NCBI GenBank assembly: GCA_011050685.1
Contig: DRFF01000020.1
Location: 1-64,000 of the forward strand
Length of the DNA: 64,000 nt
DNA from: Aurantimonas coralicida
Lineage (GTDB): Bacteria; Pseudomonadota; Alphaproteobacteria; Rhizobiales; Rhizobiaceae
Reading direction: 5' to 3'
The number at the start of each line of letters is the position of its first letter. Within the stretch, counting starts at the first letter, position 1. The position numbers and the translations under genes are program-made. Under the pieces are notes generated by a model, which was not told the DNA's origin, did no database searches, and worked only from the letters and a program-made list of their open reading frames with translations. Below are positions 11,492 through 34,213 of the stretch, piece by piece.

Positions 11492-11552
11492 GGCGGGGCC
11501 TTTCGATGCCGCGACGTCGGAAGAGCCGCGCCGCGAGGACCCCGCGAACGCC

Positions 11553-11632
11553 CGCAATCCCTCCGCCGGTACGATCCGGATCAGGTTCGACGGGTTGGCG
11601 TGACGCCTCTCAGCCCGAAGGCACCCCGTGTG
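11553..11632 (-). promoter_or_regulatory. TPP riboswitch (THI element) upstream of thiBPQ
   Basis: Reading the minus strand, the element contains GGGGTGC, then GGCTGAGAGGCGTCACGCC, then AACCTGATCCGGATCGTACC and GGCGGAGGGA, in the order and spacing of the TPP-binding aptamer. CTGAGA and the CCTGATC core are nearly invariant in this class. The 3' end lies about 60 bases before the thiB ATG, so control is probably by hiding the ribosome-binding site or by early termination. No oligo-U terminator is obvious, which favours translational control. Confidence 0.95.
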
Positions 11633-11760
11633 AGCTGCCGAAGATTTAGCGGCAAGCTCCGCCACCGGCAAGGGCAGCCAGTCCAACGGCCACTGCTTCG
11701 AGCGGGTGGACACGTTTTCCCCCTCCCCTTCGCCGCTTCCACGCGCTAGATCACGGCGCC

Positions 11761-18708: not shown

Positions 18709-21700
18709 CTATTTGCCAAGCTTGTCCTTGAGCGCCGCGAGCTTGGCGAAGGGCGAATCGGGGTCGACGCGCTGCGGCCTTGTCTGCACCGGCTTGTTGT
18801 ATGAGGTTTGCGGCTTGTCCAAGCGGCGGCCACCGCCACCCTCCTTGCGCTCGCCGCGCTCCTTCCAGTCACGATTCGACCGGCCTTTGGCCTGACGCTC
18901 GTTCTCGGTCCGGCCGTCGCTCTTCTGGCCACCCTTACCGAAGCGCTGGCCGCGCTCCGGCGCGGCCGCACCGTCGCCGGTCTCGCGGGCCTTGCCACGC
19001 TGACCTTGGCGATGGCCCGCCCGTCCGCCGGCGCGCTGCGGCCGCCAGACCTGCACGAGCTTCGGCGCGGCCGGCTCGCCATCGGACTCGGAGGCCGGCT
19101 CGCCAACCACCGTTTCGTCCGGCGCCGTTTCCGCCACAGGCGACTCCACCGAACTTGTCGCGGCAGGTGTGTCGTCGGTCGCTGCGACCGGGTCGGCCGT
19201 GCTGGCGGCAGGCTCTCCCATGGCGACTTCCTCGGAAGCGACCGGCGCCACCGGCACAACCGCGTTGGCAGTGGAACCATCGCTCGACTCAGCGGGCGGC
19301 TGCTCCTCCGCCGGTTCGCCCGCGGCTTCGCTCGTGGCAGCGGCGTCGCCGGATTCGTCCTGCGGCTGCGGCGTTTCGAGCGTCGCAACGGCCTCCGCCG
19401 CCTTGCGCTCGGCTTCGGCCCGGCTTGCCACTTCGGCGGCTTTGGTCTCGGCGTCGAGACGCTGGATCTCGGCTTCGACCGTACCCGCCTCGATGCCGTC
19501 GGGGCGATAGCCGAGGCCCTTGAGCACCTCTTCCATGTCCTCGGCGGTGGCGCCGAGAATCGACATCATTGCTGGCGTCACCAGGAATTGCGCGCCGTTG
19601 TAACCGCCCTCGGGACGTTTTCCCGTTCCCGGTTTCCAGGCCAGCGCCGGCCGGATCAGATCGGCGAGACGTTCCAGAATGTCGACCCGCACCGCCCGAC
19701 GGCCGAGCAGCCGATAGCCGGCAAGGCCGAAGAACACCGGATCGATGGCCGGATCGGCAACCGCCGACGTCCGGCCGGTCGCCAATAGATGCGTGACCTC
19801 GCCATAGCCGGGCCGCTCGCGTCCATCCTTGTTCACCGCCCACAGCAGCGTCAGCAAGGCCGCCGGCGCCGGCTTGATCAGCGCCGGGATGAAGATGTGA
19901 TAGGCGCCGAAGCGCACGCCGCAGCGCCGCAGCGCTGCCCGCGCGTCCTGATCAAGCGAACGGACTTCCTCGGCGACGTCGCGGCGTTGCACCATGCCGA
20001 GATTCTCGGACAGGCGAAAGGCGAGCCCTTTCGCGGTCCCCTCAAGGCCCTCGGCCGAATTCAGGTCGACCAGCGGCTTCAGCACGGTCGAGACCTGATA
20101 GGTGACGGAGCGCTCGGCCCGCGCCGCGACCTTGTCGCGCTCCGGACCGCTCAGTTGTTCGTCGGCGAACAGGACGACTTTCGGCTTCAGCGGATCGTCA
20201 CTCGCGGCAAGGCTGGCCACTGGCGCACCGAGCCAGCGGATCAATCCGTCGGAGCCCAGGGCGATGTCACCGTTCGGCGCGTTGGCGAAGCGCTCGGCCC
20301 GCTTTTCGAACTCGCCGGCCAAGGCTTTTTGCGAGGCCGCGCGCACCGCCTTGCCGTCCTGGCCCTCGGCCTTGCCGTCAAGCGTGAACCTGAACCCCTG
20401 CAGCTCCCCGACAGTGTGGCCCTCGACCACGACCGTGCCGTCGCCGCTGATCTCAGCTTCCATGAACGCGTTCTCTCTCAGCCGCTTCATCAAGACGCTT
20501 GTCCTGCGGTCTACGAAGCGTTTCGTCAACCTGTCGTGAAGCGCGTCGGAAAGACGGTCTTCGATGGCGCGTGTCTTTTCCTGCCAGTGTGTCGGATCGG
20601 CCAACCATTCCGGGCGGTGGGAAATATAGGTCCATGTCCGGATTTCGGCGATGCGCTGGGACAGGGTGTCGATGTCGCCGTCGGTGCGATCGGCACGATT
20701 GACCTGGCTTGCCATATAGTCTTCGGCGACATGGCCGCGGACGGCGAGATCGACGTAGATCGCGGCGATGATCTCGGCGTGCTGCGCCGGAGCAATGCGG
20801 CGATAATCGGGAAGCTTGCACGCTTCCCAGAGGAGCTCCACCCGCTCCCGGCCCCGCGCGAGATCGGCAACATTGGCATCGCGCGATAGGTACTCCAGGG
20901 CCCGCTGATCGACCGAGGGCAGGGATTTCGTCAGTTCCGGACAGGGCGGCGGCCGCTCGAGACTGTCCTTCAACGCCGCGATGGATGCGAAATCGAAGTC
21001 GCGGCTGCGCCACTGCAGCACCCGCACCGGCTGAAACACGTGGGCTTCGAGCGCCTCGGCGAGTTCGCCCGGCAGCGGATCGACCCGGCCGGTAACGCCG
21101 AAGGTCCCGTCGCGCAGATGCCGGCCGGCGCGACCGGCGATCTGGCCGAATTCGGCAGCGGTGAGTTGGCGGTACTGGAAGCCGTCGAACTTCCAGTCCT
21201 GGGCGAAGGCGACGTGATCGACGTCGAGGTTCAGCCCCATGCCGATCGCGTCTGTCGCGACCAGGAAGTCGACGTCGCCCGACTGATAGAGCGCGACCTG
21301 CGCGTTGCGGGTGCGTGGGCTGAGCGCACCGAGGACCACGGCCGCGCCGCCGCGCTGACGGCGAATCAGCTCGGCGATGGCGTAGACCTCGTCGGCGGAG
21401 AAGGCGACGATGGCGGTGCGGCGCGGCAGGCGGGTGATTTTCTTGGAACCGGCATAGACGAGGTTCGACAGGCGCGGCCGCGTCACCGTCTGGACGCCCT
21501 TCAACAGGCGCTGCAAGACGCCCTGCATCGTCGACGCCCCGAGCAGCAAGGTCTCCTCGCGCCCCCGCGCATGCAGGATGCGATCGGTAAAGACGTGGCC
21601 GCGTTCGAGGTCGCCGGCCAGTTGCACCTCGTCGATCGCGACGAAGGCGGTATTCGGCGCGCGCGGCATCGCCTCTACGGTGCAGACGGCATAGCGCGCG

Positions 21701-21945
21701 TTCGGCGGCTTGATCTTCTCTTCGCCGGTGATCAGCGAGACCGCCGCCGGCCCCACCCGGTCACAGACCTTCTGATAGACTTCGCGCGCCAGCAGCCGCA
21801 GCGGCAGGCCGATCGTTCCGGACGAGTGGGCCACCATCCGTTCGATCGCCAGGAACGTCTTGCCGGTGTTGGTCGGCCCTAGCACGGCGGTGACATTGGT
21901 TCCGTCAAAGCGGATGGTTTCTTGGACGGGGGGAAATTGAGCCAT
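18709..21945 (-). CDS. SUV3-like superfamily 2 RNA helicase with disordered tail
   Basis: This is a 1078-residue helicase. The Walker A motif GPTNTGKT is at residues 23-30, the motif II-like DEVQ near residue 113, and late motifs ATDAIGMGLNLD and GQIAGRAGRH near residues 235-275. These match the SUV3/MgpS group, known from mitochondria as an RNA helicase that works with RNA-degrading nucleases. Residues 500-800 form a conserved alphaproteobacterial extension. Beyond about residue 830 the sequence becomes Ala/Glu/Pro-rich, then Arg/Gly/Lys-rich, and ends in DSPFAKLAALKDKLGK. The tail is probably disordered and RNA-binding. It is followed closely by the S4-domain gene. Confidence 0.92.
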   Translation of the reverse strand: MAQFPPVQETIRFDGTNVTAVLGPTNTGKTFLAIERMVAHSSGTIGLPLRLLAREVYQKVCDRVGPAAVSLITGEEKIKPPNARYAVCTVEAMPRAPNTAFVAIDEVQLAGDLERGHVFTDRILHARGREETLLLGASTMQGVLQRLLKGVQTVTRPRLSNLVYAGSKKITRLPRRTAIVAFSADEVYAIAELIRRQRGGAAVVLGALSPRTRNAQVALYQSGDVDFLVATDAIGMGLNLDVDHVAFAQDWKFDGFQYRQLTAAEFGQIAGRAGRHLRDGTFGVTGRVDPLPGELAEALEAHVFQPVRVLQWRSRDFDFASIAALKDSLERPPPCPELTKSLPSVDQRALEYLSRDANVADLARGRERVELLWEACKLPDYRRIAPAQHAEIIAAIYVDLAVRGHVAEDYMASQVNRADRTDGDIDTLSQRIAEIRTWTYISHRPEWLADPTHWQEKTRAIEDRLSDALHDRLTKRFVDRRTSVLMKRLRENAFMEAEISGDGTVVVEGHTVGELQGFRFTLDGKAEGQDGKAVRAASQKALAGEFEKRAERFANAPNGDIALGSDGLIRWLGAPVASLAASDDPLKPKVVLFADEQLSGPERDKVAARAERSVTYQVSTVLKPLVDLNSAEGLEGTAKGLAFRLSENLGMVQRRDVAEEVRSLDQDARAALRRCGVRFGAYHIFIPALIKPAPAALLTLLWAVNKDGRERPGYGEVTHLLATGRTSAVADPAIDPVFFGLAGYRLLGRRAVRVDILERLADLIRPALAWKPGTGKRPEGGYNGAQFLVTPAMMSILGATAEDMEEVLKGLGYRPDGIEAGTVEAEIQRLDAETKAAEVASRAEAERKAAEAVATLETPQPQDESGDAAATSEAAGEPAEEQPPAESSDGSTANAVVPVAPVASEEVAMGEPAASTADPVAATDDTPAATSSVESPVAETAPDETVVGEPASESDGEPAAPKLVQVWRPQRAGGRAGHRQGQRGKARETGDGAAAPERGQRFGKGGQKSDGRTENERQAKGRSNRDWKERGERKEGGGGRRLDKPQTSYNKPVQTRPQRVDPDSPFAKLAALKDKLGK

Positions 21946-22098
21946 GCGTATCGCTATGTGGGATCACGCATCGTTTGGAAAAGGTTCTGCATTGATTTGC
22001 AACGACTTCGGTCGCCCGGGAGGCCGCCGACGAACCGCCTCGGTGGCTTCGCGATTGGCGGGCGCAAAAAAAAAGTTTTGTCTGGCGCGACTTTTTTT

Positions 22099-22123
22099 GG
22101 AACCTCTTTCACGCCCCCGCATT
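22099..22123 (+). promoter_or_regulatory. Candidate EcfG-type (general stress) promoter of the small RNA
   Basis: GGAAC at 22099-22103 is followed after 16 bases by CATT (22120-22123). The EcfG sigma factor of alphaproteobacteria recognises GGAAC, a 16-17 base spacer and CGTT, so this matches with one change in the -10 element. A start near 22130 would put the first base just before hairpin 1 of the candidate small RNA. Confidence 0.4.
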
Positions 22124-22129
22124 ATTCAG

Positions 22130-22204
22130 ACACCCCAAGCGATCATCCCCCCTCGATCGCTCTATGCAGACGGAAAAAGGCAGCTCCCCCTCGCTGCCTT
22201 TTTT
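22130..22204 (+). ncRNA. Candidate small RNA with two C-rich hairpin loops
   Basis: Two consecutive perfect hairpins are visible. The first has stem AGCGATC/GATCGCT (22138-22161) with loop ATCCCCCCTC. The second has stem GGCAGC/GCTGCC (22179-22198) with loop TCCCCCTC and is followed by six T residues, so it is also a Rho-independent terminator. No open frame explains the sequence. Small RNAs with anti-Shine-Dalgarno loops (CCUCCUCCC-type; the alpha-r14/CcsR or 'cuckoo' group) are known in alphaproteobacteria and have this two-hairpin plan. The loops here are similar but not identical. The strand is set by the T-tract. Confidence 0.6.
22174..22204 (+). terminator. Rho-independent terminator of the small RNA
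   Basis: AAAAAGGCAGC, an 8-base loop, then GCTGCCTTTTTT. The A-tract on the left makes it work in both directions, but the gene to the right starts only at 22341 and the helicase start lies to the left, so only a transcript from the intergenic region would need it. Confidence 0.8.
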
Positions 22205-22340
22205 CGCGTCTGGAGGTGGGTATCGCGGCACAGGCCGCGAAAAAATTTGGGGGGCGTTCCGAACGTGGGCGAATTCGGTTGCATCATAAGACGGGATTAG
22301 CATAGCGACAGGCTCCTGCCGCCCTCTCGGATCGTCAAAC

Positions 22341-23225
22341 ATGCAAGCCGGAATCCTCCTGGCCTTCGCCGCCTATTTTTCCTTCGCCGGCGCCGATGCC
22401 AGCCTGAAGTGGATCGGCCCCGACCTGCCGATTTTCGAGATCGGTTTTTTCGTTTCGCTGTTTGCCCTGCTGCCTGCGCTGTTTACCAAGCGCCCGGACG
22501 ACAATTGGGGCAACGTCTTCCTGCCCAAGCGTCCCGGCCTGCTGGCGCTGCGGATGTTGAGCGGCACGCTCGGCGGTATCGGCGGCGTCATCGCCTTCAC
22601 AACCCTGCCGCTGGCCGAGGCCTACGCCCTGATCTTTCTTCTGCCGATCTTCGTGACGGTGTTTTCCCGTGTGGTGCTGAAGGAGCCCGTCGGCTGGCGG
22701 CGCTGGCTCGCCGTCTTCGGCGGCCTCATCGGGGTCCTGCTCGTCGTCAGACCCGGTTTCCGGGAAATCCTGCCGGGCCATTTCGCCGCCATCCTCGTCG
22801 CGATCTGCGGCGCCGCGACCGTCATCATCCTGCGCGTCCTCGGCCCGTCCGAACGCCGGATCACCCTGATCGGTGCCGTTCTCGTCGCCGGTATCATCGT
22901 CAATGGCGTGTTGATGATCCCGAATTTCGAAACGCCCGGCCCCGCCCTCTGGCCCGTTCTCCTGCTCGGCGGCGTGTTCGCCGGCATGGGCCATCTGCTC
23001 ATCGTCTTCGCCACCCGGCTTGCCCCCGCCGCCCGGGTAGCCCCCACCCAATACAGCCAGATCGTCTGGGCCGCCGTCATCGGCGCCACCTTCTTCGGCG
23101 AATATCCGGACGGTCTCGCGATGGTCGGCATGGCGCTGGTTGGCGTCTCCGGCCTGTTCACCCTGGTGCGCGAGGAGCAGCGGTTCGGCTGGCCGAGCCG
23201 CATTCCGCTGATTCGCAACCGCTAA
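22341..23225 (+). CDS. DMT-superfamily transporter (EamA domains)
   Basis: This 294-residue inner-membrane protein has about ten predicted helices in two EamA repeats. The first repeat ends in AFTTLPLAEAYALIFLLPIFVTVFS, followed by the typical KEPVGWRRWLAVFGGLIGVLLVVRPG. The second ends with ATRLAPAARVAPTQYSQIVWAAVIGATFFGEYPDG. Family members export amino acids, purines or metabolites; the substrate here cannot be read from sequence. It stands alone on the plus strand between the small RNA and pyruvate carboxylase, 111 bases before the latter. Confidence 0.88.
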   Translation: MQAGILLAFAAYFSFAGADASLKWIGPDLPIFEIGFFVSLFALLPALFTKRPDDNWGNVFLPKRPGLLALRMLSGTLGGIGGVIAFTTLPLAEAYALIFLLPIFVTVFSRVVLKEPVGWRRWLAVFGGLIGVLLVVRPGFREILPGHFAAILVAICGAATVIILRVLGPSERRITLIGAVLVAGIIVNGVLMIPNFETPGPALWPVLLLGGVFAGMGHLLIVFATRLAPAARVAPTQYSQIVWAAVIGATFFGEYPDGLAMVGMALVGVSGLFTLVREEQRFGWPSRIPLIRNR

Positions 23226-33984: not shown

Positions 33985-34124
33985 CCCCGAAGCTGGCGCC
34001 ATGCGTCATCAGGCGCACACGGCAATTGGCGTGTCTGGGCATGATGGCGTGAGGGCGGCCGCGATCCGTTGCGGATGTCGGCTCCTGCGCCGGAATGGCG
34101 CAGCCATATCCTGACTCAGAATCG

Positions 34125-34155
34125 AAAAAGGCCGGTTTCAGCAACCGGCCTTTTT
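34125..34155. terminator. Bidirectional Rho-independent terminator between rpmF and phaR
   Basis: AAAAAGGCCGGTT, loop TCAGC, then AACCGGCCTTTTT. The 8-bp stem flanked by A5 and T5 can end both the rightward rpmF transcript and the leftward phaR transcript. Confidence 0.85.
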
Positions 34156-34213
34156 CGCGTTTGAGGGCCAAGGAAGCTGGCGTGAAGCCTTTCCGGCCTC
34201 TAAACGCCAGGCC

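What the first reader, a model, noticed from the sequence alone, without database searches (positions are those of the whole stretch)
22099..22204. Probable small RNA with twin C-rich loops, possibly under general-stress control
Two perfect hairpins carry loops ATCCCCCCTC and TCCCCCTC, the second doubling as a terminator with T6. C-rich loops can pair with Shine-Dalgarno sequences, and alphaproteobacterial small RNAs with this design (CCUCCUCCC-loop group) are known. Upstream, GGAAC with CATT 16 bases later resembles an EcfG promoter, and the predicted start falls right before hairpin 1. A stress-induced RNA that sequesters ribosome-binding sites is an attractive inference. The loops differ from the described motif, so this may be a variant family.
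Basis: partly seen in the sequence, partly recalled or inferred. Interest (0 to 1): 0.66.

Follow-up and report, generated by a model that had tools for sequence, protein, structure and literature searches.

The report
Stress-controlled small RNA with C-rich loops

Summary
Window 22099-22206 (an Aurantimonas genome) carries GGAAC-N16-CATT, then two perfect hairpins with loops AUCCCCCCUC and UCCCCCUC, the second followed by T6. The gene is conserved in 23 genomes of Aurantimonas, Jiella and Fulvimarina. GGAAC, the 16-base spacing and a [CT][AG]TT box are kept in 23 of 23; hairpin 2 shows compensatory changes, hairpin 1 never varies. The clade's phyR promoters use the same boxes, which supports sigma-EcfG control. 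It is not ar14 or CcsR1: Rfam gives no such hit, and the genome has three ar14 copies elsewhere. It works like ar14/NfeR1 and GsrN, but membership of GsrN is not shown. Both loops share CCCCUCG, complementary to CGAGGGG. Of all CGAGGGG-N4-8-ATG places in two genomes, the one gene start shared is phyR, so RNA-mediated damping of PhyR is the most novel reading. Duplex energies support it only weakly, one genome has lost the match, and no transcript has been shown. Verdict: a new, lineage-specific sRNA family of a known kind, with a testable feedback hypothesis.

The parts
22099..22103 (+). -35 element GGAAC of an EcfG-type promoter
   Evidence: identical in 23 of 23 genomes; rule GGAAC / CGTT with 15-17 bases between read in PMC5869019
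22120..22123 (+). -10 element CATT (one base off CGTT)
   Evidence: CATT 19, TGTT 3, CGTT 1 of 23; among 20 phyR leaders of the clade 7 have CATT and 8 CGTT, and 3 have a divergent TGTT site
22130..22206 (+). predicted small RNA, about 75 nt; both ends inferred, not mapped
   Evidence: model R1 match 22128-22206, 99.6 bits (the window's sequence is one of the 11 the model was built from); alignment A2
22133..22138 (+). C-rich 5' segment CCCCAA, conserved, largely unpaired in the folds
   Evidence: alignment A2; folds of 23 sequences
22139..22160 (+). hairpin 1, loop AUCCCCCCUC
   Evidence: stem identical in 23 of 23, so covariation cannot be tested
22171..22206 (+). hairpin 2, loop UCCCCCUC, read as intrinsic terminator with T6
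   Evidence: three pairs with two-sided changes among 23 sequences
22167..22213 (+). outer inverted repeat CAGACG / CGTCTG that flanks hairpin 2 and its T-run
   Evidence: in-register complement of 5 or more bases in 14 of 23 genomes, absent or broken in 9 (register counted by hand)
22341..23225 (+). downstream EamA-family transporter gene: a neighbour, not a part of the sRNA
   Evidence: Pfam EamA; in the fetched stretch of 17 of 21 named relatives
18709..21945 (-). divergent Suv3-type helicase gene: a neighbour
   Evidence: Pfam DEXQc_Suv3; in the fetched stretch of 6 of 21 named relatives

Best explanation
A trans-acting small RNA of about 75 nt, transcribed by sigma-EcfG during the general stress response. 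Hairpin 1 and the terminator hairpin each present CCCC(C)UC in the loop, followed by G as the first stem base: two redundant seeds for G-rich ribosome-binding sites (CGAGGGG), where the RNA would block translation. One likely target is phyR, so the RNA would damp the stress switch that makes it. Shown by computation: conservation, structure, promoter elements, presence of the GSR genes, complementarity to phyR. Inferred: transcription, sigma-EcfG dependence, pairing in the cell, repression, and which mRNAs are targets.
For: One match in its own genome; 19 of 394 family genomes at 74-108 bits, 8 of them not in the model; 23 genomes with the named set. Promoter boxes and spacing fixed in 23 of 23. 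The same boxes stand at phyR: 15 of 20 leaders have GGAAC-N16/17-C[AG]TT within 90 bases of the start. PhyR, NepR, an EcfG-like sigma factor and an HWE kinase are present. The four C before UCG are predicted unpaired (0.99 or more) in both loops of 23 of 23. The phyR ribosome-binding site has GAGGGG in 18 of 19 sRNA-bearing genomes and in 0 of 10 leaders read from 9 other-genus genomes without the sRNA. In a 276-gene sample that deliberately includes phyR, CGAGGGG lies in that position once, at phyR. Of all 48 places of CGAGGGG-N4-8-ATG in G004 and all 34 in G029, after a filter for coding-like frames of 50 or more codons, the only shared gene start is phyR. Precedent: NfeR1 (ar14) silences ntrBC through C-rich loops at the ntrB translation start (passages of PMC10746234).
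Against: No transcript data. The usual -10 box CATT is one base off the published rule. By duplex energy phyR ranks only 13th of 276 leaders, and 9 of 200 shuffled loop pairs rank it as high. The phyR idea arose after seeing its leader, and shared ancestry could explain the shared ribosome-binding site. G027 keeps the sRNA but has lost the phyR match; G005 has the match without the sRNA, though an assembly gap is possible. Five g21 (Jiella) genomes show no EcfG-type site within 300 bases of phyR. Hairpin 1 never varies, so covariation cannot support it. In Caulobacter, GsrN was reported not to feed back on GSR transcription (passage of PMC5869019).
Confidence: 0.6

Rival explanations
1. A leader and attenuator of the downstream EamA transporter gene: the hairpins lie in its 5' UTR and hairpin 2 is a conditional terminator.
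For: Same strand, about 135 bases upstream; EamA lies in the fetched stretch of 17 of 21 named relatives, and three of the four misses (L043, L065, L071) are cut short downstream. Presence of EamA agrees with presence of the sRNA in 11 of 12 genomes: the 11 positives plus G005. Bases beyond the T-run can pair with the RNA: with its 5' end in the fold, or with the linker in 14 of 23 genomes.
Against: G030 (Leaf443) keeps the sRNA without this EamA gene. In two relatives EamA is about 1.3 kb away. Neither hairpin opens in the predicted fold of the longer stretch.
Confidence: 0.1
2. A GsrN ortholog: a sigma-EcfG-dependent RNA whose C-rich 5' loop activates mRNAs such as katG rather than repressing.
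For: Same promoter type, C-rich exposed 5' loop and 3' hairpin (passages of PMC5869019).
Against: A katG-type peroxidase was found in only 1 of 9 sRNA-bearing genomes examined. The gene is not on the contig of phyR-nepR-ecfG. Model R1 found no strong match outside this clade in 397 order and 385 class genomes, under filters that lose weak matches. Direct comparison with gsrN was not made.
Confidence: 0.15
3. An ar14/CcsR-group anti-Shine-Dalgarno RNA that has drifted.
For: Same design of repeated C-rich loops plus terminator; R1 scores the scanned ar14 loci at 36-40 bits.
Against: No ar14 or CcsR1 hit at E up to 10. Three ar14 copies exist elsewhere in the same genome. No CCUCCUCCC in any loop of the 23, two hairpins instead of three.
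Confidence: 0.06
4. A bare intrinsic terminator or repeat element with no regulatory RNA.
For: Hairpin 2 is terminator-like and its inverted repeat reads similarly on both strands (one search gives a weak minus-strand match); terminator hairpins give weak R1 hits elsewhere.
Against: Fixed promoter boxes, invariant hairpin 1 and conserved 5' segment, one match in its genome.
Confidence: 0.04

Closest known systems
ar14 family (Rfam RF02344), e.g. NfeR1 of Sinorhizobium meliloti
   Same: hairpins that each present the same unpaired C-rich motif; redundant seeds that block a ribosome-binding site (PMC10746234 passages)
   Different: CCCC(C)UCG instead of CCUCCUCCC; two hairpins plus a C-rich 5' segment instead of three hairpins; EcfG-type promoter; no ar14 model hit; coexists with three ar14 copies
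GsrN of Caulobacter and GsrN-like RNAs of Rhizobiaceae (PMC5869019)
   Same: general-stress sigma promoter, exposed C-rich 5' loop, G-rich target motif
   Different: two C-rich hairpin loops; not near the GSR genes in this genome (in C. crescentus it is not either); katG found in only 1 of 9 genomes; sequence homology not tested directly
CcsR1 (Rfam RF02791)
   Same: RNA with C-rich motif, named by Rfam as stress-induced
   Different: CCUCCUCCC motif; no match at this locus
MicA/RybB of Escherichia coli
   Same: repressive sRNA arm of an ECF sigma regulon (passages of PMC8103513)
   Different: no sequence relation looked for; targets include the major outer-membrane protein mRNAs

Membership tests
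ar14 (RF02344) | match to the Rfam covariance model at or above its gathering score | tested here: not met
   no ar14 hit at gathering or at E up to 10 in 22000-22330
ar14 (RF02344) | three hairpins each with CCUCCUCCC (PMC10746234) | tested here: not met
   two hairpins with CCCCCCUC and CCCCCUC
CcsR1 (RF02791) | match to the Rfam model | tested here: not met
   other CcsR members were not looked at by name
GsrN | sigma-EcfG promoter (GGAAC, CGTT, 15-17 bases between) | tested here: inconclusive
   GGAAC and 16 bases in 23 of 23; exact CGTT in 1 of 23, CATT in 19, TGTT in 3; these boxes also occur upstream of phyR and divergent from it
GsrN | exposed C-rich loop near the 5' end | tested here: met
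   23 of 23, by prediction
GsrN | location near ecfG-nepR-phyR (criterion used for Rhizobiaceae; not true of C. crescentus itself) | tested here: not met
   GSR genes on contig C190, sRNA on C20; no R1 match in the 8.5 kb GSR stretch
GsrN | sequence homology to Caulobacter gsrN | not tested
   the gsrN sequence was not in hand; R1 found no strong match beyond the own genome in 385 class genomes, and I do not know whether Caulobacter is among them
GsrN | katG as target | tested here: not met
   PF00141 found in 1 of 9 sRNA-bearing genomes
sigma-EcfG regulon sRNA | loss of expression in an ecfG or phyR mutant | not testable with these tools
   needs RNA work

The most novel reading that the evidence does not exclude
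A general-stress RNA that closes a negative feedback loop on the partner switch itself: made from a sigma-EcfG promoter, it uses two redundant CCCCUCG seeds to shut the ribosome-binding site of phyR (CGAGGGGAG), the protein that frees sigma-EcfG, so the stress response limits its own duration after transcription has begun.
Probability: 0.28. Interest if true: 0.68.

Novelty: new member of a known kind. Interest (0 to 1): 0.5.

Why it matters
In the papers seen here, GsrN is the one functionally worked-out small RNA of the alphaproteobacterial general stress response, and it was reported not to feed back on that response. If this RNA silences phyR, it would be a post-transcriptional brake on the switch, easy to test in a cultured Aurantimonas. 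It would also be another use, beside ar14/CcsR and GsrN, of exposed C-rich loops as seeds for G-rich sites, which suggests (inference) that this design has arisen more than once.

Tried and rejected
Membership of ar14 or CcsR1: rejected. The weak R1 matches in the family search looked like homologs at first. Of 36 weak places, 11 had loci: 7 were scanned and all 7 hit ar14 (6 over the gathering score, L041 below it); L035, L038 and L040 show CCTCCTCCC loops by eye; L034 was printed out of register and not pursued. Two more (G113, G421) were read; the other 23 were not read. In the order search 3 of 15 new loci were ar14; the other 12 look by eye like tRNA ends or plain terminators. In the class search none of 7 weak loci hit ar14; L256 has a below-threshold match to STnc320 and L253 has twin CcsR-like loops by eye.

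A recollection that GsrN sits beside a helicase gene (note) was wrong: the word helicase does not occur in the paper's main text.

Small protein: an ATG at 22164 opens a frame through hairpin 2, and two longer mechanical ORFs (21922-22305, 21944-22300) run across the locus. The ATG is missing in several relatives, and C-run and linker lengths vary by single bases. Rejected by eye; no codon-level test was run.

katG as general target: rejected for this clade.

Genome-wide pattern counts: 48, 34 and 63 places against 7, 11 and 10 for the reversed pattern. Not used as evidence, because the reversed pattern begins with GTA and may differ in expected frequency. Only 15 of the 63 G034 places were read.

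First target ranking included stem letters and poorly called genes; replaced. Gene starts there come from a simple script, not annotation.

The genome-contig scan gave 32 loci: 21 are the sRNA, 11 are chance matches in unrelated bacteria without the promoter. One of the 21 (L055) is cut before the promoter; its genome is covered by L015.

Literature searches. Aurantimonas with small RNA and general stress gave 0 papers; Aurantimonas with sRNA gave 2 that look unrelated from their listings. Papers outside the held library were not searched.

Full report
What is there. At 22099-22206, between a divergent Suv3-type helicase gene and an EamA transporter gene, lie GGAAC, 16 bases, CATT, then a C-rich stretch, hairpin 1 with loop AUCCCCCCUC and hairpin 2 with loop UCCCCCUC followed by T6. 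Folding gives z -4.96 with 0 of 200 shuffles as stable. Rfam has nothing here at its curated thresholds, and only four weak, unrelated-looking matches at E up to 10.

Conservation. A BLAST search found it in 11 of 100 related genomes, the own genome included. A covariance model from those 11 gave strong matches (74-108 bits) in 19 of 394 family genomes, in 5 genera; 11 of the 19 are the model's own sequences. Only G000 and G027 of 397 order genomes and only G000 of 385 class genomes had strong matches; these large searches use filters that lose weak matches and sample the groups. A named-genome pattern scan returned 32 loci: 21 are this gene, in records named Aurantimonas, Jiella or Fulvimarina, and 11 are chance matches. 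One same-genus genome, G005, lacks both the sRNA and the EamA neighbour; its assembly is in about 150 contigs, so a gap is possible.

Promoter. In 23 of 23 genomes GGAAC stands exactly 16 bases before a [CT][AG]TT box: CATT in 19, TGTT in 3, CGTT in 1; most spacer positions vary. The rule used for sigma-T is GGAAC and CGTT with 15-17 bases between (PMC5869019, passage), so the usual -10 box here is one base off. The clade's own GSR promoters weaken this objection: of 20 phyR leaders (19 sRNA-bearing genomes and G005), 15 carry GGAAC-N16/17-C[AG]TT within 90 bases of the start, CATT in seven and CGTT in eight, and three have a divergent GGAAC-N16-TGTT, which by analogy with G000 would face nepR. 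Five g21 (Jiella) genomes, G027, G292, G339, G378 and G410, have no such site within 300 bases of phyR. In 800,000 strand bases sampled from G004 the pattern with N16 occurs 10 times. The own genome has PhyR, NepR, an EcfG-like sigma factor and an HWE kinase together. Sigma-EcfG control is therefore likely but not shown.

Structure. On 23 sequences all 391 cells of the 17 pairs are standard pairs. Three pairs of hairpin 2 change on both sides, in 14 cells (0 of 500 shuffles reach that number of cells; 54 of 500 reach that number of pairs). Hairpin 1 never varies and gives no covariation evidence. The four C before UCG are predicted unpaired in both loops in 23 of 23; the G is the first stem base. 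The strict conservation of hairpin 1 suggests selection on its letters as well as its shape (inference). An outer inverted repeat, CAGACG before hairpin 2 and CGTCTG after the T-run, is complementary in register over 5 or more bases in 14 of 23 genomes and broken in 9 (register counted by hand); some genomes change both arms (L021). In the 117-base fold of the window the downstream arm pairs instead with the RNA's 5' end. I leave open whether the transcript ends at the T-run or after this repeat.

What it is not. It is not ar14: the same genome has three ar14 copies in tandem on contig C32, two over the gathering score, and this locus has no ar14 or CcsR1 match. The weak family matches that were scanned proved to be ar14, 7 of 7. 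It is not tied to EamA in every host: G030 has the sRNA without that gene, and two relatives have about 1.3 kb in between. It cannot work through katG in most hosts examined: that family was found in 1 of 9. It is not at the GSR locus, the criterion used for GsrN-like RNAs of Rhizobiaceae.

How it probably works. Both loops with their first stem base hold CCCCUCG, complementary to CGAGGGG. The phyR ribosome-binding site in this clade reads CGAGGGGAG or close to it: GAGGGG in 18 of 19 sRNA-bearing genomes, CGAGGGG in 14 of 19, lost in G027; present in G005; GAGGGG in 0 of 10 leaders read from 9 other-genus genomes without the sRNA (G014 had no PhyR match, and further weaker PhyR-like matches in G010, G016 and G022 had no locus). 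In 276 genes called by script from a 400 kb sample of G004 that deliberately includes phyR, CGAGGGG falls in the ribosome-binding window of one, phyR, and GAGGGG in two. Of all CGAGGGG-N4-8-ATG places in G004 (48) and G029 (34), filtered for coding-like frames of 50 or more codons, the one gene start in common is phyR; it is also found in G034, where only 15 of 63 places were read. Predicted duplexes with the better loop are -15.3 to -21.4 kcal/mol in 18 genomes and -8.7 in G027. Against this, energy alone ranks phyR 13th of 276, and 9 of 200 shuffled loop pairs do as well. The idea was formed after seeing the phyR leader, and shared ancestry could explain the shared ribosome-binding site. I give the phyR target about 0.28.

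Precedents. NfeR1, an ar14 RNA, silences ntrBC by pairing C-rich loops with the ntrB translation start, in a double-negative loop (passages of PMC10746234). GsrN is sigma-T dependent, uses a C-rich loop, activates katG, and was reported not to feed back on GSR transcription (abstract and passages of PMC5869019). [quoted passage not shown] A general-stress RNA is therefore not new in kind. This family is undescribed as far as Rfam and eight searches of the held library show.

Noticed in passing
G000 contig C32:5429-5803 (-), loci L077-L079: Three ar14 sRNA copies in tandem in the same genome, two over the Rfam gathering score and one below it.
   Followed up: partly
window 22167-22172 and 22208-22213: Outer inverted repeat CAGACG/CGTCTG around hairpin 2 and its T-run, complementary in register in 14 of 23 genomes; the downstream arm can also pair with the RNA's 5' end.
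   Followed up: partly
window 22066-22098: Upstream of GGAAC, an A-run and a T-run about 20 bases apart recur in several Aurantimonas copies although the bases between them differ; possibly an UP-like or bent promoter element.
   Followed up: no
window 11540-11638 (-): TPP riboswitch over the Rfam gathering score.
   Followed up: no
window 34096-34190: Stretch that gives weak R1 matches on both strands, 20-21 bits; probably a palindromic terminator.
   Followed up: no
phyR leaders of G339, G378, G410, G292, G027: No EcfG-type site found within 300 bases upstream of phyR in these five g21 genomes, unlike the other 14 sRNA-bearing genomes examined.
   Followed up: no
L253 (G887 contig C27), about 1501-1573 in match orientation: Twin hairpins with TTCCTCCC and TCCTCCTCCC loops and a T-run in another family of the class; looks CcsR/ar14-like but no such Rfam hit at E up to 0.01.
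   Followed up: partly
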